From Metridium senile (Eukaryota > Cnidaria > Anthozoa > Actiniaria > Metridiidae): a stretch of DNA of 64,000 bases. The notes beneath the pieces were generated by a model. The model had not been told where the DNA came from, searched no databases, and saw only the letters and a program-made list of their open reading frames with translations. Made by a program: the position numbers and the translations under genes. How positions within the stretch are numbered: position 1 is the stretch's first letter; the number at the start of each line of letters is the position of its first letter. The stretch is taken from contig OX459100.1 of assembly GCA_949775045.1 (NCBI GenBank), forward strand, positions 4,179,936 to 4,243,935. The letters run 5' to 3'. Shown piece by piece: positions 8,376 through 40,183 of the stretch.

Positions 8376-8384
8376 AGAGGTTAG
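8376..8384. repeat. Left 9-bp target site duplication
   Basis: AGAGGTTAG immediately left of the ACTGCAGT tip; its partner is at 40175-40183. Confidence 0.8.
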
Positions 8385-8684
8385 ACTGCAGTGAAGTAAG
8401 CGATCACATTCAAAAGACATTCAAAAGGGGGCGTGATGACATCCACTAAATTCGTACACATCACTTATATACCTTAATCTTGCTTAAAAGTTGTAGTAGT
8501 CTCGAAATAAGTATTCCGATATCTTCCCTATCTATTCACGGACATTTGTGTGTATTTTCAAGTGTTGTCATCAAAAGGCCGCTTTTTTTAGAAGCACTTT
8601 CGTAAACACCTTTGATTCGCCCGCTGAAATCAACGATTGGAACGTTTACGGCCAAATCACACAACTTTTATCTTTAATAACTTC
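8385..8684 (+). repeat. Left terminal inverted repeat of the 31.8-kb composite
   Basis: Matches 39876-40174 in inverse orientation, with a few single-base differences and no large gaps. The stretch beyond 8684 (to about 9164) has no counterpart on the right, where homology ends at GAAGTTATTAAAG. This unmatched stretch is non-coding. Confidence 0.85.
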
Positions 8685-9164
8685 GCAATAAAGACCTCAA
8701 ATCGTCTAAATTTTTTCACATCAATACATTAACTCACATTGATCTCATGGCAAATATTTTCAACAACCCAAAATACAAATTCGCTTTCCATTCGAGCGGC
8801 AAAGACAGCAAAAACGTGAGAAATCTCTAGTTTTAAACTTTAATAACTCATCTAGTTTTTATTCCATCGTTCTGAAACTTGCACAACCGCTTTCGAATTA
8901 GTTGTAGATTCCATGGCAAACGGTTTCAAAAGGCAAATTAACAAATTTCTGACCAAACAATTTTACGGAAACTCGTCCGTCATCATGAAAAGTTAACACA
9001 AAAACTATTAAAAAATAATTTTTTTTTCTTATCCTACAAAAAATAACTTGTTCTACCGATAATTATCAACAATCCGAGTTATTATTAGGAAAAATCCAGA
9101 ATTTATATTAATTTTACATTTTTCGTATCATCTGTTGCGTTACCGTCACGCAATCCCGTATATC

Positions 9165-11408
9165 AAGATTTAGAAATTGTCAATTTTCTTTCATATCAAA
9201 AAGGTACGTTGAGAGATATTGTGTTGTAAATGCTTGCAATGGAATACTCAATCCATGGAGAGTTCCAGGGTTCAAAATCAGGAGTACATCTCTAATTTGA
9301 AAAAAGTTTTTAAAGATTTTCTGTTTTTTTTTTTACAAATTGCCAATTTTCAGTCATATCTAAAAAAAGGTCATTTGCATGTTGAAAGATATTGTGTTGT
9401 AAATACTTGCCATGGAATACTCAATGCATGGAGAGTATCAGGGTGCAAAATCAGGAGTATATCTCTAATTTAAAAAAAGTTATTAAGAATTTACTGTTTT
9501 TTAGAAATTGTCAATTTTCCATCATATCAAAAAACCTCATTTGCATATTCAATGATATTGTGTTCTAGATGCTTGCCATGGAATACTCAATGCATGGAGA
9601 GTACCAGGGTGCAAAATCAGGAGTATATCTCTAATTTGAAAAAAGTTATTAAGAATTTACTGTTTTTTTACAAATTGTCAATTTTCCGTCATATCAAAAA
9701 ACCTCATGTGCATGTTCAATGATATTGTGTTCTAAATGCTTGTCATGGAATACTCAATGCATGGAGAGTACCAGGGTGCAAAATCAGGAGTATATCTCTA
9801 ATTTGAAAAAAGTTATTAAGAATTTTCTGTTTTTTAGAAATTGTCAATTTTCCATCATATCAAAAAACCTCAATTGCATGTTCAATGATATTGTGTTCTA
9901 GATGCTTGCCATGGAATACTCAATGCATGGAGAGTACCAGGGTGCAAAATCAGGAATATATCTCTAATTTGAAAAAAGTTATTAAGAATTTACTGTTTTT
10001 TTACAAATTGTCAATTTTCCGTCATATCAAAAAAGGTCATTTGCATGTTGAAAGATATTGTGTTCTAAATGCTTGCCATGGAATACTCAATGCATGGAGA
10101 GTACCAGGGTTCAAAATCAGGAGTATATCTCTAATTTGAAAAAAGTTATTAAGAATTTTCTGTTTTTTAGAAATTGTCAATTTTCCATCATATCAAAAAA
10201 CCTCTTTTGCATATTCAATAATATTGTGTTCTAGATGTTTGCCATGGAATACTCAATGCATGGAGAGTATCAGGGTGCAAAATCAGGAGTATATCTCTAA
10301 TTTGAAAAAAGTTATTAAGAATTTACTGTTTTTTAGAAATTGTCAATTTTCCATCATATCAAAAAACCTCATTTGCATATTCAATGATATTGTGTTCTAG
10401 ATGCTTGCCATGGAATACTCAATGCATGGAGAGTACCAGGATGCAAAATCAGGAGTATATCTCTAATTTGAAAAAAGTTATTAAGAATTTACTGTTTTTT
10501 TACAAATTGTCAATTTTCCGTCATATCAAAAAACCTCATGTGCATGTTCAATGATATTGTGTTCTAAATGCTTGTCATGGAATACTTAATGCATGGAGAG
10601 TACCAGGGTGCAAAATCAGGAGTATATCTCTAATTTGAAAAAAGTTATTAAGAATTTTCTGTTTTTTAGAAATTGTCAATTTTCCATCATATCAAAAAAC
10701 CTCATTTGCATGTTCAATGATATTGTGTTCTAGATGCTTGCCATGGAATACTCAATGCATGGAGAGTACCAGGGTGCAAAATCAGGAATATATCTCTAAT
10801 TTGAAAAAAGTTATTAAGAATTTACTGTTTTTTTACTAATTGTCAATTTTCCGTCATATCAAAAAGGTCATTTGCATGTTGAAAAAAAAATTGTGTTCTA
10901 AATGCTTGCCATGGAATACTCAATGCATGGAGAGTACCAGGGTTCAAAATCAGGAGTATATCTCTTATTTGAAAAAAAGTTATTAAGAATTTACTGTTTT
11001 TTTACAAATTGTCAATTTTCCATCATATCAAAAAACCTCATTTGCATATTCAATGATATTGTGTTCTAGATGCTTGCCATGGAATACTCAATGCATGGAG
11101 AGTACCAGGATGCAAAATCAGGAGTATATCTCTAATTTGAAAAAAGTTATTAAGAATTTACTGTTTTTTTACAAATTGTCAATTTTCCGTCATATCAAAA
11201 AACCTCATGTGCATGTTCAATGATATTGTGTTCTAAATGCTTGTCATGGAATACTTAATGCATGGAGAGTACCAGGGTGCAAAATCAGGAGTATATCTCT
11301 AATTTGAAAAAAGTTATTAAGAATTTACTGTTTTTTTACAAATTGTCAATTTTCAGTCATATCAAATAAAGGTCATTTGCATGTTGAAAGATATTGTGTT
11401 CTAAATGG
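9165..11408 (+). repeat. ~167-bp satellite array, left arm, about 13 monomers
   Basis: A monomer of 166-170 bp containing AATACTCAATGCATGGAGAG and an A-rich GAAAAAAGTTATTAAGAATT recurs about 13 times, with TGGAGAGT near 9255, 9429, 9595, 9761, 9927, 10097, 10261, 10427, 10592, 10760, 10929, 11096 and 11262. Shared rare variants (for example CCAGGATGC at about 10438 and 11107) recur at about 670 bp, four monomers apart, indicating higher-order repeats. The open frames of 60-84 codons that cross it are translations of the repeat, not genes. Confidence 0.95.
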
Positions 11409-11417
11409 GATTGCTAA

Positions 11418-12155
11418 GATAAGTGCTATCATGTGATAGATATTGATGAGAAAAATTAAAACATTTGACTGACATGATCACTGACCACGACCTTGCAAAG
11501 TAATGACGTCATCAATGCTTTGCCTGGTTTAAGAAAATCCATGTAACTTCTGAAATATTTAGAATATTTAAATGATATGTGTACCAACAAATAGGTATAG
11601 CTGTCAGCTTTTGAGCAATACTATTTTCATGCTCATCAGATCACCTTGAAAATTGACTTGACTGACAGATTTGACATCATAACACGTGATAGGTGTGGTC
11701 AATTGGCCACATTTGTTTATGCCTCAACTAGAGCCGTCCAATGATACCAGAGTTGTATAAGTTCATAGGTTAACCGTAACCCCTGAAAACTAGGGTTCCA
11801 GATCCTATATATTTATTTCTTATTACTACAACTTGCGTTTGAAATCCAGCTTTGCTGAAAAACTCCCTTTTTGAAATTTTTGATGGAAGTGAAAACAAAT
11901 GATATCATTTGATAGATATCGATGAAATAGATTTAAAAAATTGACTGGCATGATCACTGACCAAAGTGACGTCACTTTGCCTTGTTTAACAAAAGTCGTG
12001 TAACTTTTGAACTATTTAGGGTTTTGAAATGATATGTGTACCAACAAATAGGTGTAGCTGTCAGCTTTTGAGCAATACTAGTTTCATGACCATCAGAGCA
12101 CCTTGAAAGTTGTCTTGATTGTCAGATTTGACGTCAAAACACCTGATAGGCGTGG
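11418..12155 (+). repeat. Direct duplication of a ~285-bp non-coding unit
   Basis: Segments at about 11418-11702 and 11887-12155 share long phrases, including ATGATATGTGTACCAACAAA and CTGTCAGCTTTTGAGCAATA, spaced about 465 bp. No open frame. Probably part of the original interior of the 31.8-kb composite, between its left satellite arm and the Helentron. Confidence 0.8.
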
Positions 12156-12809
12156 TAGTACGTTATTGTTACTTATTTTCGAGGGCATTCAATCTTGCGA
12201 AAATATCACTATTTCTTGGGACTTAAATTTCGTGATGCGGCGCAAACGATACGTTCACGGGACTATAAAATAGCTCGGTAAAAGGTCAAAATACTGATCT
12301 AGAATTGGCAAAATTAATTCTTATTTTTCTTATATAATAAAGATTTACAATGATCAGTGGTTATTCAGTGATGTCAGTGAAAATTAAGTCCCGCGAAAAT
12401 AGGTAACAAGGTAGTAGTATATTTGTTGTTAGTTTTTTTCCCTTATTTGACAATTATTACTTTTTATAAACCAATTTTTATATACTTTATCGTTGAATGA
12501 TTAAAAGGGATCACTCAAGCTGAACTCTTTTTTTTTGGTTATTCCTTTTTCACTAAATTGCTTTCGTTTTTTATGTGACATTATTGCAAATAGTTGCTGG
12601 CATTCCATTGTGCCGTGTGCATAGCTGCAGGTATATTTTAAAATAACTATCAACATAATTACCAAATTAACATCGATCATTACAGGAATTTCTAAAAATG
12701 TTTAGGAGAAGAGTAAAGTACAATATGACAAGTGCGAAGATATGAATAATCATGAGAAACACACTAAAATGGCATACAGCCATGTAACACTGATTTGACA
12801 AATAAACTC
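12156..12809. other. AT-rich non-coding stretch
   Basis: No gene seen. Lies between the duplicated unit and the low-coordinate end of the Helentron, and presumably belongs to the interior of the composite. Confidence 0.4.
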
Positions 12810-12892
12810 TAATATACAAATTAGGTAATACCTAATAGCGGAGCTCCCAGTCTAATTTTTTCTTACAACATCAATATGTGCATGTAAATACC

Positions 12893-13019
12893 ACTTATTA
12901 GATATTTTGTTGGGTATTACGTGCTGATATTTTACGAGTTGCGTACGTATTGCGTACGTAAAATACCAAGCAATGAGTAAAATGTCAGCCCGTAATACCC
13001 AAGAAAATATCTAATAAGG
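12893..13019. repeat. Long subterminal hairpin of the Helentron 3' region
   Basis: CTTATTAGATATTTTGTTGG and the following GTATTACGTGCTGATATTTTAC pair with a mirrored stretch ending in GAAAATATCTAATAAG. The centre has TACGTATTGCGTACGTA. The same hairpin is kept at 59126-59250 in the short copy, so it is part of the element and not a chance palindrome. Confidence 0.75.
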
Positions 13020-14800
13020 GATTTATTATAATTTATTATTCACTGTTTATTGTAATTTCTATATCATCTTTAATTGAAAAATATAACCTTTCGGAGATTC
13101 AGCGCGCGGAGAGAGAATCAAAACAAATAGTTAAAACACAGGCAGCCCAAGCAAATCACTTGTATTCAGTGGATTCTTTTTTTTTTTCATTTTTTTTTTC
13201 AATAAAATGTTACTTAACTTTGTCTGTAGTTGTTGTGATGTATGTAAATACTTTTTGGATGAGCTCCCGAAAGATATATTTAGTCAGTTAGTTCGGAGAT
13301 ATGTGTGACGGAGGACCCATTTAAATCAGACTCCTTCAGGTTTTGCTAAGAATAAAACATTTTTTTGAATAAAACCAAATCTTGTAATTGCCAGTCAAAT
13401 GATGAACATGTATTCATTAACTGACTATTCTTTTCCTCTTGAGTTTTGTTGATGCAAAACACTATATATATATAGAGAGAGTAGAACACTAACAAATTTG
13501 AATTCTTATAGTGTTGGTGTACAATTTATTATGAAGATTGTTTTAAAATACACTATCCTAATTATGTTACATATATTTCTCTTAAAAAATAACATAACTT
13601 AAGTTATTTACAAAAGATAATGCATTGCCTGCTACGAAAAAAACCAGATGTAAACCACTTGGGGAACAAAATTCTGGAAAACGTAGTCCCCGACCAATGC
13701 AAATGTATGGTAGTTCCGGGGGTTAGAGCATTATGAAAGATTAGCTAAATTAAATTTATATATAAGATTGAAAATAAAATCATAATATATTTCGTAATCC
13801 GATTATATTCAAATTATATCAATGTCATTAATTACATGTGCTGATCAATACAAAACTGTTTGCCCACTGATCAATCTTCAATGCAAATTCGTACAGTTAA
13901 GTAATTCTCCCTTGTTTTAAATAATAATATGGTATATTACTCAATACAGCATTCATTTTCATATTGTATGAGGTTGCAAAAAAAAGGATGTATTTAGTAA
14001 GTAAATATACTTGTGGTCAATCTGAAAAAAAAAAAAAAAAAATGATTCTAAATGATTATGCAAATAATAAATCAATACACTTTATTTCAAAACATCTTTC
14101 TGCAGCTGTGTAACTATTAGTCCAAGAAGACAAGTGGAGTATGTACGATTTGATAGACCATAAAACATGTTATCGGTCAAATAAAGAATAAAAATCATAA
14201 CTTTTTCAGTTTTGCTTACTCAAAACATGGCATCTACTGGTGATATATCAAACAATTAGACCATTAGTAGAGTAGCCAATAAGAAAACAGGATTTGTGAA
14301 AGACCATTAGTAAATTGTTTATAATAAATGCAGAATAAATGCACATTAGAACTGGTAAGAGATAAAAAAAGAATAAACTCACCTGCTTACTAAAAACAAG
14401 TGTCTATGCAAATAACTGCCAACTGCAAACCTATATAAAGAACGAAAAAAAATGATCTTAATTAGTGATGAAAATAAAAACAATAGTAAAAATAATGATG
14501 TCATGATAATTATCATAATAATAATGCTAATAATGATACTAATAAAACATTGAATTTGCATGTCTTATGTTAACAATTAATATCAAAACAAAACTGCATT
14601 TTCATACATGTATACTATCTAAAATAATCAATTTGGACTGTTTTTCTTGGTAAGCTTAAAGTATTTGGAGCTAAAAAAATTAAATAACATCAACAAAACC
14701 TGTCTTCTCAATTGCTATGCTCTCTATCTAAATAGGATTGGATAAAATTTGAACAATAGGTTAATAGTGACATATATAAAATATCGACAATTAATGAGTA
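13020..14800. other. AT-rich Helentron tail without genes
   Basis: Contains TTCAGCGCGCGGAGAGAGAA (about 13098, shared with 59320 in the short copy), a (TA)n/(GA)n microsatellite near 13464-13486, and a poly-A run at about 14024-14041. The minus-strand frames at 14379-14561 and 14708-14911 are low-complexity translations. Confidence 0.4.
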
Positions 14801-14889
14801 AGTGAATGGATGAATGAACAAACAAACAAATGAATGATTATGACTGGACGAGCGAGTGAGTGCATGATTGAGTGAGTGCATGTGTGAGT

Positions 14890-15035
14890 GAGTGAATATC
14901 CTTAGCCACAAAGGCCTATGAGATATTCATTGCCACAAAGGCTAAACACAGCCACAACGGCCACTCACATATCCTTACCCACAAAGGGTAATTAATGGAT
15001 ATAAATTACCTGATTTCAAACTGCAGTAGTAGTGG
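14890..15035. repeat. Minisatellite of ~25-bp units (AGCCACAAAGGCC)
   Basis: Degenerate tandem copies of ATCCTTAGCCACAAAGGCC-type units, ending in TATAAATTACCTGATTTCAAA. A close counterpart is at 17540-17760. Confidence 0.8.
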
Positions 15036-15066
15036 GTGATTAATAAACATTTTTGATCCCTTTTTT

Positions 15067-16363
15067 AACTCGTGGATCGAAGATCCTCGAGTTATTGGGA
15101 TGGGGCTTTTGAACCGGAAGTGTCACTCACTCACTCACTCACTCGCTCACTCGCTCACTCACTAGACCGTCAGTGTAAACTTTTGAGCCCCAAGATCTCG
15201 GTCAGCGTACTTCGAGCACATGGATATTTGATTCGTCTGAAGGAATGATTTTTCGGTCGAAGTAATCGCGAATACTCTCATATTTTATGTGCTCACGCCA
15301 CACGATTCGCAGTAGAATTACACATAAGTTTATGTCGAATGTTTTCGGAAATGGTCACTGTGAATTTTACTAAAGATCATGCAATTTACGAGCGAACTAA
15401 GCGAGCCAACTTATTATGATCAAATTTATCGAGATATCTTCCCTGCTATAAACAGAAGCTACTTTTTATCCATCCTTTCATAATGCTATGGAATGGATTC
15501 ACAACCAGTTACAAAGGACGAAGCTGTTATTACTGGATATTTAACAGTATTTCCGGTAAGCATTCTTAGAGAGTACGATACACACTAGAAGTGAAGACAA
15601 CAACAGTATAATAGTTTAGTGATGTTGTTTGGTAAATATATTGCTTATTGTAACTATTTCTTTTATATTTTTGATTAAAGTAACCAGTTTATCTGTCAAT
15701 AGTTTAATTTTATTGACTACTATTAATTCGTACAAATTCGAACGGCGATTGAAACAGGCGATTCTCGAGCTCTTAGCTTCTTGTACAGAACAACAAACTT
15801 ATTCGCAAAACTTAAATCGCTTCACCCTATTATCTAGCAGTTCAACTTAACGATCTATGTATATGTAGATGAAAGTAATATTTCTTTCTTTACAATATGT
15901 GAGATAACGTGATCGGTTTTAAACCTCCAGGTTGACCTCGACAACAACAAATAAACAGCTAAAACGGCCTCTCTAAAAACTACACCCAACAGCCCAAATC
16001 GCCTCAAATATAACACCAATTGCTTCAATGACTATCTAATTTGCTTTTTCTGGCGTTTATTTTGCAAGAACAACTTAATAACACTGTTTCTTAGACACTC
16101 TTTGAACTCGCATGTATCTCTGCACGAACCGAAGATCGAACCAGGTAAATATCAGACTTGTCAGCGGATCACGGACTGAGGGAACGACGGACCGTAAGGG
16201 AAACGGACGACAACCAAAAAAATACAAATAAAACAACAACATTGAATACTTATTTTTCGCTTCAAATCATCTCAAGCTAATCCGAGAAAATAATTACATA
16301 ATCGTAATGGAGCGGTCTAAACTGTAAGCGCTTTCAAAATGTTCTAATTATGATCCACGAGTT
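15067..16363. mobile_element. 1.3-kb candidate element with AACTCGTGGATC inverted ends
   Basis: The left end AACTCGTGGATC is mirrored exactly by GATCCACGAGTT at the right end. The left end also forms an internal hairpin (AACTCGTGGATC-GAA-GATCCTCGAGTT). It sits inside a duplicated segment whose other copy lacks it, which supports insertion. It contains an (ACTC)n microsatellite at 15124-15170 and no convincing gene. No clear target duplication. Confidence 0.45.
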
Positions 16364-16715
16364 GGCCATAGGTGGCCTTTGATTTGTATGTTTGTCTATC
16401 CATTTGAATTGATGTTTACAAATTTGGCAAAGCAACGAACACTAAAATTGTTGAAAGTTGCATCAAGTCTAGCTTCTTTCCAAAATGAAATAATATGTAT
16501 TTCAGTAGTGACACACAGTCTCCATATTCATATCTGTGTATTTCATATTATGTTTTTGACTTTTAATTTTGATTATTGGCTTTTTTAGCATGTAGAACTA
16601 ATTTTTGTTTGGAATCTATAAATATAATTATACAAATTGCTATTTCAATGATTAAACTTTGACTTCTGTGTTAATTGAGATAGTGTTAGGTAATGGTTTT
16701 GTAGCTTTTTACAAT

Positions 16716-17003
16716 TTGAAAACAGGTAATAGCCACAAAGGCCAATCAGATATTCAGAGCCATACAAGCTCATCATTCATAGTCACAATAACTATTCAAA
16801 CACAATAATTTTATCCATGCATAATATTTACAATTCAACTCACTGCAGCTGTAGACTGAGCCCAGTCTACAAGTCTACGGAAGGTAGACCCATCATATGC
16901 TCCAGCTAAACTTTCTCGGTTACGGCAATCTACTGCCAATGATTGCAGCCTTTGCATTTCTGCCGATCTTGAACAAGTAGTTGGAGTGTTCACTGCATGT
17001 ACG
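16716..17003 (-). pseudogene. Duplicate of the Rep-helicase C-terminal segment
   Basis: About 150 bp (16850-17000) are nearly identical to 18228-18380, the last ~45 codons of the Rep-helicase gene. The flanking minisatellite and a TTTGAAAACAGGTAAT phrase (16716) match 18084-18100 in the same order, so about 290 bp was duplicated in tandem, 1.37 kb apart. The reading frame changes after the copied part, so it is a dead fragment or an unused alternative terminal exon. Confidence 0.75.
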
Positions 17004-17535
17004 ACCACATTAAAAAAAAATTCAATATGTATAATCTTAAGTTCGAAAACTGACCCTTAAAGGTATGGTGTCAGTTTGAGACCCTAAAAGGTACGCGAGG
17101 GTCTTTTTTTCGACCTTAAAGGTATGTCGAGCACCCCTATCCATTTTCTAAGGGAGTACCCCCCGGGAATGCTAACCTTTAGAAAATATCACATGAATTT
17201 CAATACTTTATGAGTAACAAAACTGGTCAGAAATTATTGATTAATTTAATTGCAAACAATATAATGATCTTTGAATTGCATGTTAAATTGATAAAAACAT
17301 GACATATTCTTCTACTGAATGTTATATATAAACACAGAAATGTGTACATTGTAAAACTACACTAATGACTGAATACATGATGACAGTTCATGACTAATTC
17401 AATGAAAGAATAACCGAATGAATGGCCATATTAATAAATGGATGAATTAATTAATGGACGTATTAATAAATGGATGAATCAATGAATGGATGAATTATTA
17501 AATAGATGAATTAACAAATGGATGAATTGATGAGT
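17004..17535. other. Non-coding stretch with repeated short motifs
   Basis: Contains GACCCTAAAAGGTACGCGAG and ACCTTAAAGGTATG-type short repeats (about 17050-17165), then AATGGATGAAT repeats (about 17435-17540). No gene. Confidence 0.4.
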
Positions 17536-17539
17536 GAAT

Positions 17540-17760
17540 GAACCTGATCTTAGCCACACAGGCCCATCAGTTATTCATAGCCACACAGGCAATTTAATAT
17601 CCTTAGCCACACAGGCCAAATAGATATTCGTAGCCACACAGGCCAATTACATATCCTTAGCCACATAGGCCAATTAGATATTCATAGCCACACAGGCCAA
17701 TTACATATCCCTAGCCACTAAGGCCAATTAGATACAAACTACCTGATTTAAAACTGTAAT
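17540..17760. repeat. Minisatellite of ~25-bp units (AGCCACACAGGCC)
   Basis: About eight copies of a unit reading CATATCCTTAGCCACACAGG with alternating TATTCATAGCC forms. It ends in CTACCTGATTTAAAACTG, matching the end of the array at 14890-15035. The remaining bases to 18090 are non-coding. Confidence 0.85.
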
Positions 17761-18217
17761 TGGGTTGAGTGATAATGTGTCTGGCCGCCATGCACTGCTT
17801 TGTAATAGAAAGGTAAATTTTACACCGTAAAAAGTAAGAAAGGTGTAATATTTAGGACCTGTTTTTATCATAACTGTTTCGTTACACTAGCCTACCGCTA
17901 GTTATCATCTTGTTCATTGCTTTGTTTGTCTAGTATGCATGTGATCTAATTTTGACTGTTATTGTTTTTTCTTTTTTGACTTAAAAAAAAAATGTGTGCG
18001 CTCTATAGATATTATTATTGTTTTGATTATGTGACTCTTGTTCATTGCGACAATGCTAGGGAAAATTTATGCAGGCTTCACAATTTGAAATCAGGTAATA
18101 AGCCACACATCCTAAATCAGATACTCATAGCCAAAAAGGCACATCACTTTTTCATAACAACAAAAGCTATAATTCAAATACACTAATTTTTTCCATAAAA
18201 TAGCATTTACCAGTTAT

Positions 18218-26950: not shown

Positions 26951-26954
26951 GTTG

Positions 26955-28416: not shown

Positions 28417-29010
28417 TAACTTCCAGCTTAGTTGGTTTTAAATATAACCTGAACATCTAAAGATAATCAACCTGCATCAGCAATAAGCAATTATATCAGC
28501 TACATGTAGACTTTAAAAATGCATTCAATACAGAACTATAATGTATTTATGCAAAATAACCCTTTCTCATGAGCATCCTTATATTCAAATTTTTGTGTAA
28601 ACATGATTGTACAAAAATTGCATTTTCAAACTTCTAAATGTCATTGGGATTACAAGAAAAATATATTTATGAGTCAAAAAGTATACATTAGTCACTAGCT
28701 ATCGGAGATGAAAATAGTTGAAAAAAATCAAAAGGTATCTTCAGAAGTGAGGTACATTTAAACTGCACTAATCTTATTATGCAAGGAAGGTAATATAGAT
28801 AGGAAGCTGTCAAAGACAATACTACTACATTCATTGTTTGTCTTAAAATATAACTACTTACAAGAAGAAAAAAAAAGAAACATCCTGTAAACATTATATA
28901 TAAAGTATGATTCATCAAGTATATATGAGCCCAAATTTCAGATGCATCATGAGCCCGGGATCTCTCACTGTCCGGGCGAGTACAACCATTAAGCTACTGA
29001 AATCATTAAG
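28417..29010 (-). repeat. tRNA-like repeat unit, second copy
   Basis: Duplicates 26955-27660 about 1.45 kb downstream with roughly 85-90% identity by eye, including the CCGGACAGTGAGAGATCCCG tRNA-like segment (minus strand). The frame at 28688-28918 is not supported as a gene. Confidence 0.6.
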
Positions 29011-30288
29011 CTACTGAGATCAGTAAATACTACGATACCTATACATCATTCGTTTTGAGCACGAGTGGTCATATAATTCTCCCATGGGTCTATAGTTTTA
29101 AATCATACTTATATTACCTAAATATTACCATAGCAAAATATCGTCAAAACATCAAAACTTGGGTACAAAAACCTTATTTCCGTGTAAATTTAAGTTTTGT
29201 AAAGTTTACTTACATTGTATCAGCATGTTTCTCAACTAAATTCCAATAAAATACGTCCGTATGTCGAGTCGATTCCAATAGCAAACGCTATCCATAATTT
29301 TACTTTTTCATTGCCCAAAACTTCCAAACTTGACATTTATGAATCGTCAAGAAACCATCCATGTGCATTTTTCGACTGTTCTTTTGTAAATTGATGTTAA
29401 ATTCAATGCATTTTGATTCAGATCTAAAAAACAACTGGTCATGTCATCCACTCGATCCGCCATCTTGAATATTCTTGCAGTGGTTGTTATGGAAACCAAT
29501 AAACAATACTATTTTTAAAAGATAAAATTTCATTTCCAACTCATATTTCCCGGCTTTATTACATTTCAATGAAAAAAGAATTGATTAAAATGGAGTTGTG
29601 ATGCTCAACATTTTTATACCATCATTAAGAAACAAAAGCAAGGAGGACTTGAGGACATTTTACGCTACTAACTCGAACAAGAAAAATATCAACACACCAT
29701 CTTCGTGAAATTAGCAATGGAGAAAATGTATTTGCAAATCATACCAAAATGTCATCGGATTTTTGCCGAACATCCAAAGCAGTTAAGATAATACTCAAAA
29801 TTCAAATTCAATAAGTTTATATTGTGTGAAAAGTGCAGTAAATGCTAGCGCTTGCAAATCTAAATGAATGTTCTGGGAATGTGTCTTGTTAAAACGATGA
29901 ATTTCAATATGGCGAACGTGACAAAAAGGACTTATTTAGCTTCGTGACAGACTCTAAAGCTGTGTAAAACTGCTTTTGATAATTGATATGTCAATAAGTT
30001 TATTTGAAAAATAAAGTGAAATACCTAAAACTTACTATCTAGATGTTAAAATTTTATTTCAAACGAAAAAAAACGAAATAATACTGCAGTTTTTCACTTT
30101 GCCGATATTTTCATAAAAACTTTGACGTCTAACTTCCGAAATGAAGGCAGTGTCCCGATTTGTCGACTTTATAATAAAATAAAAGTTAATTTTTTTACGT
30201 CTCACAAAAATAAACCAAAACAATTGAATAGAAACGAACAGCATACATAATAGAAAATCTACATAGACGCATATAATTTTAGACTTAC

Positions 30289-30766
30289 CTGAGAGAATTG
30301 AAGCGCTTGCCATCTCCCCTTCGAGACCGCGGCGGCGAAGTTGTCGAAATCTAATTCTCTCTCTTCTCCGGTACTCCTCTGTACATTTTCTTCTTTCATT
30401 TCTCTTCCTTGCGTTCTCTATTTCTTGATCTTCTTCGGTGAAGTTTTGTCTGAAAACCCTTACTCTTTGGCGCTCATGTTCTCTATTTTCATCAGTGAAG
30501 TTCTCTCTCAAAGCCCTTAGTCTTTGCCGTTCGTCTTCTCTATTTTCATCGGTCAAGTTCTCTCTAAAAACTCTTCGTCTTTGGCGCTCGTGTTCTCTAT
30601 TTTCATCGGTCAAGTTCTCTCTAGCTCTTTTTCTTTGACGTTCTTGTAGTCTTTTTTCTTCACTAAAATTCCTTCGTCTTTCTCTTTCTCTTTCACGTTT
30701 CCTTAGTTTTTCTTCTTCTGTCAAGATTCTTTTTGTCTTCTCTGATTTGACTTCCTTCGTTGACAT
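30289..30766 (-). CDS. Helentron Rep-helicase, exon 1 (Arg/Glu-rich repeats)
   Basis: Begins with ATG at 30766 and runs 159 codons to a strong donor (CTCTCAG|GTAAGTCT), leaving one base that fits the start of exon 2 at 23474. The protein is extremely charged: a ~17-residue unit of the form RENLTDENREHERQRRR repeats about four times, followed by RKCTEEYRRRERIRFRQ. Such Arg/Glu coiled N-termini are common on animal Helitron/Helentron proteins and probably bind DNA or self-associate; that role is inference. If read through the donor the frame continues about 76 unrelated codons. Decayed versions of this exon (KRVLTEEE frame) survive in both short copies, near 49360-49480 and 60785-60895, which supports it as the real gene start. 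Confidence 0.75.
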
Positions 30767-31058
30767 CTCAAATATATCGAAACTCTTGCTTTGTTGTTGT
30801 TAAAAAGTGTTTGTTTTAATTTTGTTGTCGACCACAGTCGTTGTCGAGCAAACAAAACAACAACAACAAAAAAAAAACCATTGCCGTATTTCGCGCGCGC
30901 GTCAAACTACATTTTCCCGCCGAAATGTATCAGCCAATCAGTATCGCGATGGGCACGGACGCCGTTGTACGGACGTGCGCGCCCGCGATCCTATGTGGTG
31001 TCCATGAAAAATCAACTCGATGGGTTACCATTTTTTCTTAATTATGGTGCTCCGCTAT
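30767..31058 (-). promoter_or_regulatory. Conserved 5' end of the Helentron family, probable promoter
   Basis: This 290-bp stretch upstream of the exon 1 ATG is conserved in all three copies (also about 49490-49756 and 60905-61191). Shared landmarks are a CG-rich GCGCGCGTCA, CCCGCCGAAAT, AGCCAATCAG (a CCAAT box), ATCGCGATGGGC and ACCATTTTTTCTTAA before the GCGGAGC tip. Conservation and position suggest it holds the promoter and the 5' transposition signals. Confidence 0.55.
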
Positions 31059-31451
31059 AATAAAGTTATATAATTGGCTGGGTGAAACTGCAATTTTCTG
31101 TAATCAGAGCATTGAAAGTGATTGTTGTGCTAGTGAATGGAAACTAGCGAGTAAACTAGTATAGGCTAGCTGCGTCGGTGTTGTGCTAGTGGGAGAAAGC
31201 ACACATTTCTCACAGTATAAATTCATTGATTTAATAGAAGGTGACATAAACCGACTTGAAAAATCGTTCATTGATAGTGCAAAAAAAATTCACACACTAT
31301 AAAATGCATATATCCTGTTCTGCGAGTGACCTACATGATCATATGGCAAAAATGGACCCTAGCATTTCCAAAGGGAATGTTAGCGTTATAAAGAAAATAA
31401 TGAAAAAAGCCAAGGAATTCAGTGAAGTTGCTCTGAAAGAAAATTGATTAA
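31059..31451. other. Non-coding stretch between Helentron and right satellite
   Basis: A short plus-strand frame (31256-31447) has Lys-rich sequence but no recognisable domain, and its start lies next to poly-A-like runs. It is not supported as a gene. This stretch is probably original interior of the 31.8-kb composite. Confidence 0.35.
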
Positions 31452-33157
31452 TACCAACGATTTTATATACTCCTGATTTTTCACCCTGGTACTCTCCATG
31501 CATTGAGTATTCCATGGCAAGCATCTAGAACACAATATCATTGAACATGCACATGCACATGAGGTTTTTTGATATGACGGAAAATTGACAATTTGTAAAA
31601 AAACAGTACATTCTTAATAACTTTTTTCAAATTAGAGATATACTCCTGATTTTGCACCCTGGTACTCTCCATGCATTGAGTATTCCATGGCAAGCATCTA
31701 GAACACAATATCATTGAACATGCAAATGAGGTTTTTTGATATGATGGAAAATTGACAATTTGTAAAAAAACAGTAAATTCTTAATAACTTTTTTCAAATT
31801 AGAGTTATACTCCTGATTTTGCACCCTGGTACTCTCCATGCATTGAGTATTCCATGGCAAGCATCTAGAACACAATATCATTGAACATGCAAATGAGGTT
31901 TTTTGATATGACTGAAAATTGACAATTTCTAAAAAACAGAAAATTCTTAATAACTTTTTTCAAATTAGAGATATACTCCTGATTTTGCACCCTGGTACTC
32001 TCCATGCATTGAGTATTCCATTGCAAACATCTAGAACACAAATATCATTGAACATGCATATGAGGTTTTTTGATATGATGGAAAATTGACAATTTGTAAA
32101 AAAAACAGTAAATTCTTAATAACTTTTTTCAAATTAGAGATATACTCCTGATTTTGCACCCTGGTACTCTCCATGCATTGAGTATTCCATGGCAAGCATT
32201 TAGAACACAATATCATGGAACATGCAAATGAGGTTTTTTGATATGATTGAAAATTGACAATTTCTAAAAAACAGAAAATTCTTAATAACTTTTTTCAAAT
32301 TAGAGTTATACTCCTGATTTTGCACTCTAGTACTCTCCATGCATTGAGTATTCCATGGCAAGCATCTAGAACACAATATCATTGAACATGCAAATGAGGT
32401 TTTTTGATATGATGGAAAATTGACAATTTGTAAAAAAAAACAGTAAATTCTTAATAACTTTTTTCAAATTAGAGATATACTCCTGATTTTGCACCCTGGT
32501 ACTCTCCATGCATTGAGTATTCCATGGCAAGCATCTAGAACACAATATCATTGAACATGCAAATGAGGTTTTTTGATATGATGGAAAATTGACAATTTGT
32601 AAAAAAACAGTAAATTCTTAATAACTTTTTTCAAATTAGAGTTATACTCCTGATTTTGCACCCTGGTACTCTCCATGCATTGAGTATTCCATGGCAATCA
32701 TTTAGAACACAATATCATGGAACATGCAAATGAGGTTTTTTGATATGATGGAAAATTGACAATTTCTAAAAAACAGAAAATTCTTAATAACTTTTTTCAA
32801 ATTAGAGATATACTCCTGATTTTGCACCCTGGTACTCTCCATGCATTGAGTATTCCATGGCAAGCATTTATAACACAATATCATTGAACATGCAAATGAG
32901 GTTTTTTGATATGACTGAAAATTGACAATTTCTAAAAAACAGAAAATTCTTAATAACTTTTTTCAAATTAGAGATATACTCCTGATTTTGCACCCTGGTA
33001 CTCTCCATGCATTGAGTATTCCATTGCAAACATCTAGAACACAAATATCATTGAACATGCATATGAGGTTTTTTGATATGATGGAAAATTGACAATTTGT
33101 AAAAAAAACAGTAAATTCTTAATAACTTTTTTCAAATTAGAGATATACTCCTGATTT
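31452..33157 (-). repeat. ~167-bp satellite array, right arm, about 10 monomers
   Basis: The same monomer as at 9165-11408 in the opposite orientation. A higher-order period of about 1003 bp (six monomers) is visible: the variant monomer with CCATTGCAAACATC and ATGCATATGAGG occurs at about 32000 and again, seemingly identical, at about 33003. The array is interrupted at 33157 by a transposon and resumes at 37718. Confidence 0.95.
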
Positions 33158-33250
33158 CACGGCGGGCACGCGCGACCCCGAAATCGGAACTTTTCGCCAT
33201 TCATTTTGGTCAGCGGCCTAACCCAACAATACATAACTCGGAAATCCAAA

Positions 33251-33503
33251 ATGGCGGCTGCTCGAAGGATAAATTACAATGTTGAGGAAGTTTTAGACCA
33301 GATTTGGAATGATAGTGACGAAGAGGAAGAGGAAGTACTTGAGAAAGAGGAGGTAGACAGGCAGAAGGAAGTTTTAGACGACTGGGTTGACACATTTGAT
33401 GGAGGAGAACAGTGTGACAGCGAGTTTTTGAGGGAGAACGCTAAAATGTCACTTCTCCCTCTGGTTCGACAGGCGTTTCTCAGAACATCTACCGACGAAA
33501 GAG
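33251..33503 (+). CDS. First exon of a transposon-borne gene, acidic N-terminus
   Basis: ATG at 33251 in a good context (AAAATGGCG) opens 84 codons to a donor (GAAAGAG|GTAGGT). The protein starts MAAARRINYNVEEVLDQIW and then has an acidic DSDEEEEEVLEKEE patch and further Asp/Glu-rich helix. Phase 1 at the donor matches the acceptor at 33964. No catalytic motif and no family recognised. As the only good gene start in the CACGG-ended element it may be the transposon's own protein or a captured gene. Confidence 0.55.
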
Positions 33504-33963
33504 GTAGGTTTGATTTATTTTACTTGAACTATATTTGAAAAGATACATTTGCACTAGTTTGATAACCATTTTTAAAGATATACATAAAACAAAACAAACA
33601 AAAGAAGAAGAAAAAACAATATAAACAATTCTGCATGAATTTTGCTACAGTACAAGTTGACAACAATTATACAGGTCCACCAAATAGATTTGTGTACTGT
33701 AAATATGTACTTATAGAAAACCCAAGAGTATTTGAGTCATATTACACTATTACATAAATTATAAAACATTACTGTAAAAAAAAACATTCTTACATTAAGG
33801 GTTTTTGGTCCATATGGTAAGAAAATTCCCCTAAATTATTTATTTATTTTACCATAAGGAATTTAATCACCTCATGGACAATAACCCTTGAAATAAATAT
33901 TGACTTTTTTAACAGTGATCCTTGTACAGCATGAATATTTAATTATGTTTATTTTATTTATAG

Positions 33964-34364
33964 ATCTTCAGCAAGTTGCCCAAAATTTGAATTCACAGAC
34001 TGTAAGTGTTAGAGCAGTGCTAGATCAGGAGAGTAGGTTGTGACTTAGTGGTATTTATAGAAGACTGGCTGGAAGGGTTGGTATACCCAAACCATACTAT
34101 GCTGAAATTACACGAAGCATACCACATAGTGTGTTTTTATCTATGCGACAAGTGTTGAGGGACCTTAATGTTGCTGAGCCAAACTGCTATTTTGCTGGAA
34201 ATAAGAAAGCAGATGTTATTTCTATCACAAATATGGAAATTGTCCACAAGTTGCTGTCATGTTTGTCTGGTCATACCATTGCTGAAGTGAAGAAGTACTT
34301 TGAACGCACTCACAGGTATGACCAGATACAACCACAGGGTAAAAGTAATAACATCAACCTCTAA
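33964..34364 (+). pseudogene. Second exon region of the same gene, with an in-frame stop
   Basis: Follows the acceptor TTTATTTATAG. It continues the frame of exon 1 (DLQQVAQNLN...) for about 26 codons to TGA at 34041-34043, then stays open in the same frame for 106 more codons (LSGIYRRLAGRVGIPKPYYA, later NCYFAGNKKADVISITNME) to a stop at 34362. The protein-like composition after the stop suggests a single nonsense change. An alternative donor (ACT|GTAAGT near 34011) might skip the stop in spliced RNA. Family unknown. Confidence 0.5.
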
Positions 34365-34929
34365 GGACTTTGCTTTTGTTTACAAAAAGAAGTGTGGACA
34401 ATTAATTGTACAATACTATTACGGTGAATGGAATTTTCATGGTAATGCTCAACATTTTGGCTAAAACTAACTGAAATATTTATTTGGATGAGCCCTTGAA
34501 CTGTTAAATTCACTTATGTTGGCAACAATTAAAGATTGGATTAGATGATAATTTGTTATGAAAGAACAACATTTTTGAAAACTCATCCAAATATATATCT
34601 GTAGCTAGAGTGCTTGGACTGAATGTACTTGATAAACAACACAATACTGATTAGAAAAGACCCATGCAAAATTTATTTATTTCAAATTGTTTGACTATTT
34701 TAAATATTGTGTTCTCAATCCCTGGGCACTACTTGTTAGCTGGTACAAAGTTAATGTGAACAGATAAAAGAGAACAAATTTTAAAGATGCATGCTATAAA
34801 TTTACAGATAGTCTTGCTCAGGTTAATTGAAATCAATACTCATTGCTTTTGTATATTCAATGCATGCATTCTTACTGATAGTTAAAAACCAAAAAAAACA
34901 GTCACAAATTTTGAGCATGCAAATATTTT

Positions 34930-35735
34930 ATTCTGTTATATTTCTACATGTGTAAAAATTCATTAGATATGTTTATGTATTGTTTATTTCCAACTGTACA
35001 CTAGTTACCACTTATTATATACATGTGTAAAAACTCATTAGATATATCATTATGGTTTGTTAATTTCAACATGTGTAGTACCACTCTTGTCTAATTAGTG
35101 ATTACAACATGTGTAAAAACTCATTAGATATATCATGATGGTTTGTTAATTTCAACATGTGTAGTACCACTCTAGTCTAATTAGTAATTACAACATGTGT
35201 AAAAACTCATTAGATATATCATTATGGTTTGTTAATTTCAACATGTGGAGTACCACTCTAGTCTAATTAGTGATTACAACATGTGTAAAAACTCATTAGA
35301 TATATCATTATGGTTTGTTAATTTCAACATGTGGAGTACCACTCTAGTCTAATTAGTGATTACAACATGTGTAAAAACTCATTAGATATATCATTATGGT
35401 TTGTTAATTTCAACATGTGTAGTAGAGTACAAACACTAAAAGTGTGCAACATAAATACCACTAAATACTGCTAAATTATGCAAATTCTTTTGTCCTCTAT
35501 TGTTTAATCAACACTATTTAGTGGTAAATAGTACAAAGTATTGCACATTTTTAGTGTTTGTACTCTACCACTCTAGTCTAATTAGTGATTACAACATGTG
35601 TAAAAACTCATTAGATATATCATTATGGTTTGTTAATTTCAACATGTGTAGTACCACTCTAGTCTAATTAGAGATTACAACATGTGTAAAAACTCATTAG
35701 ATATATTATAACAGTTTGTTAATTTCCAACATGTG
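34930..35735. repeat. 88-bp tandem repeat array
   Basis: About eight units contain CAACATGTGTAAAAACTCAT, TTAGATATATCATTATGGTT and CCACTCTAGTCTAATTAGTG, with near-identical central copies and decayed edges. One unit is split by the MITE at 35425-35565. Confidence 0.9.
35425..35565. mobile_element. 141-bp MITE with TA target duplication
   Basis: GAGTACAAACACTAAAA at the left end is mirrored at the right end. TA lies outside both ends (35423-35424 and 35566-35567), and the surrounding 88-bp repeat gives the empty site. TA duplication fits a Tc1/mariner-type MITE. Confidence 0.8.
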
Positions 35736-36173
35736 CTAATAAGCACTATTACATGTACATGTGCACTAGAGTGCTGTCAATAAAACCATGAAATATGCAT
35801 AGCTATTTAGCCATTTGTGCATGTAAGTACTGCTTTTTTCACTATACAGTACATGACTGTGTGATTAGCTGTAATTATGCATACCTATAGTTATGCCTAT
35901 TTCACAGATTTATTGATTTGATGGCACTCTAACACATTAGAATTAGAATTACCTTTGCATAATCTTTATTACTCAATTGAGATATTTTTGAACTAGCAAT
36001 ACAGAGTTGTCAATAAAGAGGATTTCAAAATAATGGCATTTTTGTATGTGATTTTAAACTAAAAGAACTGCATTGACTGTGATAATAAAAATAAATACTT
36101 GCTGGTGGTAGGCACGATATTCCCTTATGTTTGGTATACGTCATGTTAATTCAAATGATAAATTTTGTTTTAG

Positions 36174-36364
36174 CACTCAAATACACAATCCTCAAGACAA
36201 TTTGCTCCAAAGAGCACATAATTCTCATTGGAGCTACAGGCACTTCCCAGCCTATGATAATAATCCCTATAAGCCATGCACAAGCAGTGTCGTCTTTTCC
36301 ACAAGGGGCACCAACTCCACCTAGGGACATAAAATTTACGAGGCTGATTATTGAACCACTTTAA
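36174..36364 (+). CDS. Possible terminal exon of the transposon-borne gene
   Basis: The acceptor TTTTGTTTTAG is followed by a 63-codon open frame to TAA (YTILKTICSKEHIILIGATG early, then a Pro-rich APTPPRDIKF and LIIEPL end). The exon begins in phase 1, like the other introns of this gene. AATAAA-like signals follow at about 36387. No domain recognised; continuity with 33964-34364 is not proven. Confidence 0.35.
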
Positions 36365-36420
36365 ATCATAAATATGACTATTATTTAAATAAAATTATGC
36401 AAGCCTATTAAAGTGTCGTT

Positions 36421-37717
36421 TGTTTTAAATCCCTGAAACATTCATGCATCTTGTCACTTCAATCCATATCTTCACAAAGAGTGCCATACACGTTGTGAAC
36501 ATTGCCAATAGGAATTTGCTTAATAAAAGGCATGAGCCTGTTATAAGGGATGAGTGTAGGCAATGAACAACCGTCAACAGCTGAAGATATGTTCTGCATA
36601 CCCCCCCCCCCCCCCCCCCCCAAAACCACCACCCCCACTATAATATACAGTGTGAGAAACACATTAAAACTTAATAGGAAACCATGAAAAACAACTAGAG
36701 CGAAATAGTGATTCAATTAGTGTGATAAGCTTGTGTATGATTGTGCATTTTATGGCCTGTTTGTCTGTTTTGTTAAGCTACTGACAGTCACACGTGCGCA
36801 CGGCTTGTTGCTAAGCGAAAAATCAACAATATTATTGTTCATACTATGACACGAAGGCAAAAATACTATAGAAGAGCCGAAAGCCAATAATGATAGTTAA
36901 TATTCTTTATTTCACATGTCAATATATCTGTTTTGCTTCAGCTTCAAGTTAACTTGATCTGAAAGCAGATTAAAGCATTGTTTGCACGACAATCAAAATC
37001 GAAAATTATCACAACATTGTAAGAATTATTAAATCCAATCCCTTATAAAGAAAATCATATGGTTTTGCTCACCTTTTCATCAAGTTTCTGACACAAGTGT
37101 TAGTGTCTTCGCGTGTAGATCTCTCTACTTTGTCTTTATCAAGTCGTCGGTATCAGTTCAAATCCCGTTCTAATGAGTCGATGCCCCTTGACTTCATAAT
37201 ATGTCCTTCTCTCAACTGTTTCTTCTTCTTATTAAAGCTCGAAAGATCGAATCTCGGCATTGTTTTCGCGATAAATAAAGACCTTATCGCGCGAAATCTA
37301 AGTAGTTTATCCAAAATCTGGAGTCAACAAATTCTAGTTCAACTCACATTCTATCACAAAATCAAGAGACTTAAACTATTTAACCTTCATAAAAAAAATT
37401 TTCCCAAGGCGATAAAAGTGTATTCAGGCGAGAATAGCGAAATGTCGTTCAAACTGTGTTTTTTCAAGCAAACAGTGTCGACTTTACAGCTATATTTGTT
37501 GACAAGTTTGGTATCAAATTTAAGCTCTTTCCTTCGTCGAGCATATACGATTAGTCGATAAACCTTCGGAATAAACCGAAGGCAGTGATCGGCTCCCGAA
37601 TTATACCGTCAACGGTTTTCGCTAATTCGGCACCAGTCCACCGAAAATTGAAAACGGCCAATATGGCGGCTTCGGCGATGAAACGTTCCTATTTCGGGGT
37701 CGCGCGTGCCCGCCGTG
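36421..37717. other. Subterminal region of the CACGG element
   Basis: Non-coding. The long plus frame at 37097-37561 has no protein-like features and overlaps a region with palindromic CTTCGG..CCGAAG motifs near the element end. Confidence 0.35.
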
Positions 37718-38617
37718 TTTTGCACCCTGGTACTCTCCATGCATTGAGTATTCCATGGCAAGCATTTAGAACACAATATCATGGAACATGCAAATGAGGT
37801 TTTTTGATATGATTGAAAATTGACAATTTCTAAAAAACAGAAAATTCTTAATAACTTTTTTCAAATTAGAGTTATACTCCTGATTTTGCACTCTAGTACT
37901 CTCCATGCATTGAGTATTCCATGGCAAGCATCTAGAACACAATATCATTGAACATGCAAATGAGGTTTTTTGATATGATGGAAAATTGACAATTTGTAAA
38001 AAAAAACAGTAAATTCTTAATAACTTTTTTCAAATTAGAGATATACTCCTGATTTTGCACCCTGGTACTCTCCATGCATTGAGTATTCCATGGCAAGCAT
38101 CTAGAACACAATATCATTGAACATGCAAATGAGGTTTTTTGATATGATGGAAAATTGACAATTTGTAAAAAAACAGTAAATTCTTAATAACTTTTTTCAA
38201 ATTAGAGTTATACTCCTGATTTTGCACCCTGGTACTCTCCATGCATTGAGTATTCCATGGCAATCATTTAGAACACAATATCATGGAACATGCAAATGAG
38301 GTTTTTTGAAATGATGGAAAATTGACAATTTCTAAAAAACAGAAAATTCTTAATAACTTTTTTCAAATTAGAGATATACTCCTGATTTTGCACCCTGGTA
38401 CTCTCCATGCATTGAGTATTCCATGGCAAGCATTTATAACACAATATCATTGAACATGCAAATGAGGTTTTTTGATATGATGGAAAATTGACAATTTGTA
38501 AAAAAAAACAGTAAATTCTTAATAACTTTTTTCAAATTAGAGATATACTCCTGATTTTGCACCCTGGTACTCTCCATGCATTGAGTATTACATGGCAAGC
38601 ATCTAGAACACAATATC
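37718..38617 (-). repeat. Continuation of the right satellite array, about 5-6 monomers
   Basis: Takes up the satellite exactly where 33157 left off in repeat phase. Its first ~730 bases are nearly identical to 32155-32885, as expected for the next higher-order unit. It ends in a 100-bp filler (38618-38721) joined to a LINE fragment. Confidence 0.95.
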
Positions 38618-38721
38618 AATAACTGGTTACGTACAGACAGTGTGTAGCCGTTTGTAACGTGAGTACTTTGAAATTCAAACCTAACGTATTAGCGTGCGTT
38701 ACTCTAATACGTTACGCTAAT

Positions 38722-39700
38722 GCCTCTGACTACGCACGAAACATTGGAGTTATATTCGACAAGCACATAACATTGGAAAAACACGTCACAAACACTTGTA
38801 AATCAGCTTTCTATCACTTAAGGAATATTGCCAAAATAAGAGACTGTCTAACACAAAGTGATGCAGAGACCTTAGTGCATACATTCATTTCGTCCAAACT
38901 AGACTATTGTAATGCACTCTTATATGGCCTTCCACAGTGCATCCTTGACAAACTTCAGTATGTGCAAAACTGTGCGGCACGTCTTGTGACAAGAACCAAG
39001 CGATCGGAACACATTACTCCAGTTCTACGAAAATTGCACTGGCTGCCAGTAAGGCAGAGAATTATATACAAAATATTACTCCTTACCTATAAAGCACTTA
39101 ACTCTATGGCTCCAACGTACTTAACCGATTTACTACAACGCTACACACCACCAAGACAACTAAGATCGTCATCAAAAAATCTACTCAAAGTACCAAATAG
39201 CAACCTGAAGTCTTATGGCGAAAGAACCTTCCAAGTAGCTGCCCCTAAACTTTGGAATGAACTTCCCGAAAACGTTAAGATCGGCAACTCAATCAATGAA
39301 TTTAAAACCAGCATTAAGACATTACTTTTTAGAGACGCTTTTCAGATATATTAAGATAGATAAGTTGTAACTTGAAATAGAATAGAACAATAACGTATAT
39401 TGAACAACAAGTAACTCTTAAAATCAATTTAATTTTAATATACATATATGAAGTAATTTTTAATATCAGTTTTTATATACATAGAAAAATAGATAACTTA
39501 AATTTAAATTTATATACATAGAACTATAGATAACTTTTAATTTCAATTTACATACATCGAATACATATAACTTTTAATATAAATTCATATTCATAAACAA
39601 TAGATTACTTTAAATATTATTCTTTCAATTAATCATTGTAAAGCGCCATTGAGCTTCCGGAAATGGCGCTATAAAAATGCTTATTTATTATTTATTTTAT
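38722..39700 (+). pseudogene. 5'-truncated LINE copy (C-terminal part only)
   Basis: From 38722 on it is nearly identical to 46307-47270 of the LINE at 44161-47283. It covers the C-terminal ~220 residues after the reverse transcriptase core (SDYARNIGV to FRDAFQIY) and the 3' UTR with CGCTATAAAAATGCTTATTT. The frame is intact to the TAA at 39352. The 100 bases before it (38618-38721) are filler with internal inverted pieces (AACGTATTAG and CTAATACGTT), as seen at sloppy integration or repair joints. Confidence 0.85.
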
Positions 39701-39875
39701 TAATGCGCTCTCAAGTTACCAACGGCACACACAGGTCGATAACGCTAATCCATTACCGGAAACTCTAAGGATTAAATACAGCACAGGAAACCCAAAGGCT
39801 CTCATGATTATAATAGATTTTATTTCATTGTATAATTTATTTCATATAAAAGCGACACAAAGCAGGGCTCCCTGT

Positions 39876-40174
39876 GAAGTTATTAAAGAAAAAAGTTGTG
39901 TGATTTGGCCGTAAACGTTCCAATCGTTGATTTCAGCGGGCGAATCAAAGGTGTTTACGAAAGTGCTTCTAAAAAAGCGGCCTTTTGATGACAACACTTG
40001 AAAATACACACAAATGTCCGTGAATAGATAGGGAAGATGTTGGAATACTCATTTTGAGACTACTACAATTTTTAAGCAAGATTACGGTATATAAGTGATG
40101 TGTACGAATTTAGTGGATGTCATCACGCCCCCTTTTGAATGTCTTTTGAATGTGATCGCTTACTTCACTGCAGT
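39876..40174 (-). repeat. Right terminal inverted repeat of the 31.8-kb composite
   Basis: Inverse copy of 8385-8684. The 170 bases just inside it (39701-39875) match neither the left arm nor the LINE, so this side has lost or replaced sequence. Confidence 0.85.
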
Positions 40175-40183
40175 AGAGGTTAG
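40175..40183. repeat. Right 9-bp target site duplication
   Basis: AGAGGTTAG immediately right of the ACTGCAGT tip; identical to 8376-8384. Confidence 0.8.

What the first reader, a model, noticed from the sequence alone, without database searches (positions are those of the whole stretch)
8376..40183. 31.8-kb composite transposon with satellite-filled arms and a perfect 9-bp target duplication
Two 300-bp inverted repeats 31 kb apart are nearly identical, share the tip ACTGCAGTGAAG and are flanked by the same AGAGGTTAG. Just inside each lies an array of one satellite in opposite orientation. Seen directly: ends, duplication, satellites. Established: long TIRs with 9-bp duplications are the Mutator-like pattern. 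Inferred: a ~7.7-kb non-autonomous element whose arms carried or grew satellite arrays and which then accumulated at least three large insertions. A TIR element that spreads satellite DNA would be a route for seeding new arrays.
Basis: partly seen in the sequence, partly recalled or inferred. Interest (0 to 1): 0.9.

Follow-up and report, generated by a model that had tools for sequence, protein, structure and literature searches.

The report
Foldback transposon with satellite-filled arms
This is an old, insertion-riddled copy of a mobile DNA family in an anthozoan (a relative of corals and sea anemones) whose mirror-image ends each carry a stretch of tandemly repeated satellite DNA, a design known from a few other animals and here seen in many fresh copies.

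Summary
The inverted arms (303 bp, 97.0%) are flanked by the same 9-bp AGAGGTTAG and carry mirror-image arrays of one ~167-bp satellite. The window's own genome (389 Mb, anthozoan-like) settles what it is: tips with up to 2 mismatches form 21 inverted pairs 3.3-31.8 kb apart, and 21 of 21 have a target duplication (14 perfect 8-bp, 6 perfect 9-bp, one 9-bp with one mismatch). All 21 contain the satellite. The window also holds a paralogous empty site of another copy (15311-15521, 210/211). Intact relatives read tip domain, satellite array, inner domain, non-coding middle, mirror image: the Foldback plan, closest to Tetris of Drosophila virilis. The window copy is the longest because other elements landed in it; it is not a composite transposon. 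No long free satellite array was seen within capped searches. No MULE transposase lies in any of the 21 copies, so Mutator membership is inferred. New observation: without the other subfamily, identical monomers make up 27/1356 pairs within arrays, 15/1170 between the two arms of an element and 6/14310 between elements, which suggests exchange between arms; it rests largely on a few elements. New member of a known kind.

The parts
8376..8384 (+). left copy of the 9-bp target duplication AGAGGTTAG
   Evidence: perfect match with 40175-40183
8385..9168 (+). left tip domain; first 303 bp match the right arm at 97.0%
9169..11407 (-). left satellite array, about 13.4 monomers of ~167 bp
11382..12156 (+). 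inner domain of the left arm (overlaps the array edge)
   Evidence: matches the inner domains of other copies at 87-93%
12157..12593 (+). remnant of the non-coding middle
   Evidence: 12244-12593 matches three copies of the second subfamily at 86-88%, 11520-12495 matches C8:7.79M at 89%
12594..31431 (.). body without match to the middles of the fetched copies (apart from the empty site at 15311-15521); contains Helitron and other repeats
   Evidence: boundaries of the single insertions were not resolved
15311..15521 (+). paralogous empty site of another family copy (C4:5374182-5377481)
   Evidence: 210 of 211 bases identical to that copy's flanks with one copy of GAGCCAAC
18218..23544 (-). Helitron protein frames (Helitron_like_N PF14214, PIF1 PF05970, DUF6570)
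31432..31466 (+). 35 bp identical or nearly so to the middle of six other copies, directly beside the right array
   Evidence: 100% in five, 97% in one
31465..33157 (+). right satellite array, inner piece, about 10.1 monomers
33158..37717 (.). 4,560-bp DNA transposon inserted in the right array; 27-bp identical ends, TTT duplication (PIF/Harbinger-like by recall)
37718..38618 (+). right satellite array, outer piece, about 5.4 monomers
38619..39872 (+). LINE-like piece and other sequence that replaced the inner half of the right tip domain; 38722-39702 is 97.5% identical to 46307-47282 outside the element
39873..40174 (-). right tip domain, outer 302 bp
40175..40183 (+). right copy of the 9-bp target duplication

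Best explanation
The interval is one old copy of a non-autonomous, Foldback-type DNA transposon family. Each end is a long inverted arm made of tip domain, satellite array and inner domain around a non-coding middle. Shown: copies insert whole and make an 8-9-bp target duplication; the satellite is an inherited part of the arm; arrays differ in length between copies whose 303-bp arm ends are identical; the window copy was later broken by other elements. Inferred: it is moved in trans by a transposase encoded elsewhere that recognises the tip, most likely of the Mutator (MULE) superfamily; arrays grow and shrink by unequal exchange; the two arms of one element exchange blocks of monomers, perhaps through foldback pairing.
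For: 21 of 21 tip pairs with 8-9-bp duplications; paralogous empty site 210/211; mirror-image arrays in 11 of 14 copies read in full and satellite in 21 of 21; inner domain inverted in both arms; no reading frame over 218 aa (stop to stop) in six copies and no period of three or frame-keeping indels in the middle; arm ends identical between C1:23.0M and C2:28.3M although arrays are 13.3/11.3 and 17.1/12.3 monomers.
Against: No transposase gene was found between matching tips: 0 of 30 PF10551 places and 0 of 57 places of a MULE-related fragment lie in the 21 copies, the nearest being 296 kb from a listed tip, apart from one fragment beside a tip-less arm relative at C2:47.36M. The Merlin search did not complete. 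Arm exchange rests on few elements.
Confidence: 0.9

Rival explanations
1. Same Foldback-type element, but moved by a transposase of another superfamily with similar duplications (Merlin, hAT or P; lengths recalled). Galileo of Drosophila is a Foldback-shaped element of the P superfamily (PMC3573991, PMC3688188; abstracts' beginnings seen in listing).
For: 14 of 21 duplications are 8 bp; no MULE transposase in the copies.
Against: The closest structural relatives are placed in Mutator: Tetris by its authors, Tm1 with 8-10-bp duplications. Indirect.
Confidence: 0.25
2. The satellite is an independent genomic satellite that invaded or was captured by the arms recently.
For: A second subfamily carries a satellite only about 76% alike while the tip is about 91% alike, so arrays or whole inner arms may have been exchanged. 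A few short arrays lie where no tip was recognised.
Against: Array position and inner phase are the same in many copies; the listed satellite places lie in family copies, beside single tips, or in short pieces. Both searches were capped.
Confidence: 0.08
3. The two arms are separate insertions or an assembly artefact.
For: None found here; satellites and inverted repeats can mis-assemble.
Against: The same pairing with a shared duplication at 20 other loci and an empty site.
Confidence: 0.01

Closest known systems
Tetris, Foldback transposon of Drosophila virilis (PMC4079207; abstract and passages seen)
   Same: Arms of tip domain (up to 866 bp), tandem repeats and inner domain; non-coding variable middle; 8-10-bp duplications; no transposase in the copies; link to satellite DNA.
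   Different: Unit about 220 bp, unrelated host; Tetris repeats also form longer satellite-like arrays, whereas no long free array was seen here.
Rehavkus-1_TC of Tribolium castaneum with satellite TCsat23 (PMC10218199; passages seen)
   Same: 164-bp satellite in the inverted ends of a DNA transposon; no long free arrays seen there either (no stretch over nine monomers).
   [quoted passage not shown] a transposase with PHD finger defines Rehavkus (PMC6446971), none was seen in our copies. Sequence relation not tested.
Tm1, Mutator/Foldback family of root-knot nematodes (PMC3169594; passages seen)
   [quoted passage not shown] 8-10-bp duplications in 45 of 53; paralogous empty site.
   Different: Repeat unit 13-15 bp; some copies encode a transposase.
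Satellite-like repeats carried by Helentrons in oyster (PMC7492417; listing only)
   Same: Short satellite arrays spread by a non-autonomous mobile element.
   Different: Rolling-circle element without long inverted arms (recalled).

Membership tests
Foldback-type element | long inverted arms containing tandem repeats | tested here: met
   mirror arrays in 11 of 14 copies read in full
Foldback-type element | arms and whole element mobilised as a unit with target duplication | tested here: met
   21 of 21 pairs; empty site
Foldback-type element | variable middle without conserved coding capacity in most copies | tested here: met
Mutator (MULE) superfamily | 8-11-bp, mostly 9-bp, target duplications | tested here: met
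   14 of 8 bp, 7 of 9 bp, one of these with a mismatch; not exclusive to MULEs
Mutator (MULE) superfamily | MULE transposase in the element or in an autonomous partner with the same ends | tested here: inconclusive
   none in 21 copies; a MULE-related fragment beside one tip-less arm relative
Rehavkus | transposase with PHD finger | not tested
   no transposase was found to test
   the arms of all 21 pairs share one duplication outside the pair
Free satellite DNA | long arrays outside transposons | tested here: inconclusive
   none in the listed rows, but both searches were capped

The most novel reading that the evidence does not exclude
The element works as a moving satellite factory: in each copy the two arms keep their arrays alike by copying blocks of monomers between the inverted arms, array size changes within the lifetime of identical arm ends, and a conserved ~300-bp tip carries different satellite variants in two subfamilies. 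Satellite homogenisation would then be driven by pairing inside one transposon and not only by exchange between chromosomes.
Probability: 0.3. Interest if true: 0.65.

Novelty: new member of a known kind. Interest (0 to 1): 0.45.

Why it matters
It brings the Tetris/Rehavkus arrangement to an anthozoan genome with many copies, clear target duplications, an empty site and near-identical young copies. That makes two questions testable in one genome: how satellite arrays grow inside transposons, and whether inverted arms homogenise each other.

Tried and rejected
Satellite against tip domain: under a loose score no better than shuffles (largest z 2.6); a stricter score found only the edge of the array. 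A weak 166-bp periodicity of the tip domain remains (z 2.8, 2.5, 2.9, 2.7, 1.6 in five copies that are not independent).

Transposase: none of the 30 loci fetched for PF10551 matches the arm or the satellite; eight have short weak matches (28-111 bp) to the middles of the second subfamily, to which I give no weight. A SWIM-domain frame ends exactly where an arm relative begins at C2:47.36M. I considered that the arm grew from the end of a transposase gene, but the frame lies outside the arm and the arm lacks its first 11 bases, so a rearranged junction is simpler.

Others: satellite pattern in viral contigs 0 matches; Rfam 0 matches in the window; Pfam found nothing in several small frames. 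A search for PF12762 (Merlin) did not complete. In the arm tree the window's two arms and the C2 relative are about equally distant (2.4-3.4%), so the 303-bp ends themselves give no sign of conversion in this copy.

Papers: seven searches. Searches returned one paper each, neither about this by its title; not read. PMC4079207 was seen as abstract and passages; PMC6446971, PMC10218199 and PMC3169594 as passages; all others as listings. The library is open-access papers only, so I do not claim that this family is absent from print.
Full report
Where it is. The window is G000:C6:4179936-4243935 of a 389-Mb assembly in 169 contigs. A host-like protein in it (57237-58655, minus strand) has its closest named relatives in Nematostella vectensis (54% identity) and next in stony corals (lineage of Nematostella). 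I infer an anthozoan; the species is not known to me.

The observation. AGAGGTTAG occurs twice on the + strand, at 8376 and 40175, each directly outside an ACTGCAGTGAAG tip. The arms match over 303 bp at 97.0% in inverted orientation. Tandem Repeats Finder gives arrays of a ~166-bp unit at 9215-11407, 31465-33157 and 37718-38618. The two right pieces read as one array broken by a 4,560-bp insertion whose first and last 27 bases match in inverted orientation and which is flanked by TTT.

The family. A search with the left arm scored 40 of 72 candidate places, most of them in inverted pairs. The 18-base tip with up to 2 mismatches has 62 places, 40 of them exact. The control, the pattern read backwards, has 838 places, so single weak matches mean little; pairing and duplications carry the argument. 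By contig, orientation and distance I formed 21 pairs: 18 of two exact tips, one of an exact and a one-mismatch tip, one of two one-mismatch tips, one of two two-mismatch tips. Of the exact tips three stayed unpaired (C1:41843198, C11:388738, C13:1193634). The flanks of all 21 pairs were read: 14 perfect 8-bp duplications, 6 perfect 9-bp, and one 9-bp with one mismatch at C7:11.7M. Lengths are 3.3 to 31.8 kb; the window copy is the longest.

Empty site. The flanks of the 3.3-kb copy at C4:5374182-5377481 lie side by side in the window at 15311-15521, inside the body of the studied element; with one copy of GAGCCAAC kept, 210 of 211 bases agree. This paralogous empty site shows insertion with an 8-bp duplication.

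Anatomy. I read 14 of the 21 pairs in full, the window copy included. The typical order is tip domain, satellite array, inner domain, middle, and mirror image. The array starts 792-794 bp from the tip in six copies, 784 bp in the window copy, 778 bp in C13:5.83M, and further in where other sequence is inserted. The inner domain is inverted in both arms: in C1:23.0M the first 674 and the last ~672 bases of the body match the same stretch of C6:18.3M in opposite orientation, at 98% and 94%. Arrays have up to 22.4 monomers on one side; 11 of 14 copies have mirror-image arrays on both sides (one side of C2:5.54M only 1.3 monomers), C8:7.79M and C4:5.37M on one side only, and C7:11.7M has pieces in one orientation only. 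The other 7 pairs have satellite in the listed rows, on both sides in 4 and on one side in 3. Two subfamilies share the 303-bp tip at about 91% but the inner tip domain at about 72% and the satellite at about 76%. The middle of C1:23.0M is matched in large blocks at mostly 95-99% in five other copies. The longest stop-to-stop frames in these six copies are 218 aa (in a repeat also found at the right of the window) and 204 aa. Between distant copies substitutions show no clear period of three and most indels are not multiples of three. One copy, C11:0.39M, carries an inserted LINE frame of 1014 aa.

The window copy. From the left: duplication, tip domain, array, inner domain to about 12156, a piece of middle to 12593, a long stretch without family match that includes Helitron frames (PF14214, PF05970) and repeats also found outside the element, 35 bp of middle (31432-31466), the right array with its insertion, a LINE-like piece that replaced the inner half of the tip domain, right tip, duplication. 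I did not resolve the borders of each insertion in the long stretch. Its arm ends differ by 2.6%; those of ten other copies by 0-0.7%, of C1:17.6M and C7:11.7M by 2.0%, of C8:7.79M by 8.5%. The arm ends of C1:23.0M and C2:28.3M are identical, as are those of C13:5.83M, C4:5.37M and C11:0.39M, so the family moved recently and the window copy is older.

Satellite and element. With the window's satellite the search reported 500 matches with 39 of 76 candidates scored. The listed rows, read by hand, lie in the 21 pairs except four at C2:47.362-47.363M, beside an arm that lacks its first 11 bases. With the second subfamily's satellite it reported 411 matches with 38 of 74 scored; listed rows outside the pairs lie beside single tips (C11:0.39M, C1:41.84M, C11:16.87M, C14:5.97M) or, 13 rows by hand count, at C7:14.29M and 14.33M, C10:12.39-12.40M and C12:8.28M in short arrays without a recognised tip. 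No long free array appears in these lists; both are capped.

Array evolution. The window's left array shows a 5-monomer and its right array a 6-monomer higher-order pattern. Among 209 monomers from 8 elements (the window's right array left out) identical monomers make up 35 of 1506 pairs within arrays, 30 of 1320 between the arms of one element and 6 of 14310 between elements; but half of the 30 come from C13:5.83M, whose subfamily was left out of the last count. Like for like, without it: 27 of 1356, 15 of 1170, 6 of 14310; without C8:7.41M too: 21 of 1030, 7 of 830, 6 of 8871. Five of the 6 between-element pairs join the two closest copies. Two of six elements share no identical monomer between arms. 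Reassigning right arrays among the six elements reaches the observed 15 in 2 of 720 orders. Exchange between arms is the simplest reading, because inheritance alone should leave each arm most like its counterpart in other copies; the sample is small.

Transposase. PF10551 has 30 places in the genome and a MULE-related fragment has 57; none lies in the 21 copies and the nearest to a listed tip is 296 kb away. One fragment lies between two direct copies of a 97%-alike arm relative at C2:47.357-47.362M, a rearranged place. The middle is non-coding, so the source of transposase is unknown and the superfamily is inferred from duplication length and plan.

Comparison. Tetris of D. virilis has the same domains, 8-10-bp duplications and no transposase. 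Rehavkus-1_TC of Tribolium has a 164-bp satellite in its ends. Tm1 of root-knot nematodes has variable tandem repeats in its arms. The plan is known; the host group, the number of copies, the empty site and the test of arm exchange are what is added.

Noticed in passing
L026:247-501 and 4531-4785 (C2:47.357M and 47.361M): A SWIM zinc-finger frame (PF04434) ends exactly where an arm relative begins at its base 12 (GTAAGCG...); the first ~852 bases of the place are duplicated 4.28 kb further on (98.9%).
   Followed up: partly
L059, about its last 3.7 kb (C2:47.3685-47.3723M): GC-rich stretch with dense reading frames that look like an endogenous adintovirus or Polinton relative (recalled resemblance, no search made). 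Observed only.
   Followed up: no
L010 (C2:5.54M): Inside this copy satellite pieces and inner-domain pieces alternate in three similar units about 1.4 kb long, as if a larger tandem repeat were forming.
   Followed up: no
window 23997-25403: Two 580-bp inverted arms, 99.0% identical, 247 bp apart, inside the body.
   Followed up: partly
window 62437-63272: Repeat with a weak GIY-YIG match (E 0.0076, below the Pfam cut-off), also inserted in copy C1:17.56M at 98.5%.
   Followed up: no
C1:63.33-63.36M, C9:7.30-7.32M, C1:53.08-53.10M: Listed satellite rows reach over about 8 kb in one arm at C9 and at C1:53.1M, the largest arrays seen; these copies were not read in full.
   Followed up: no
window tip 8385-8392: The first eight bases of the tip, ACTGCAGT, are their own reverse complement.
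   Followed up: no
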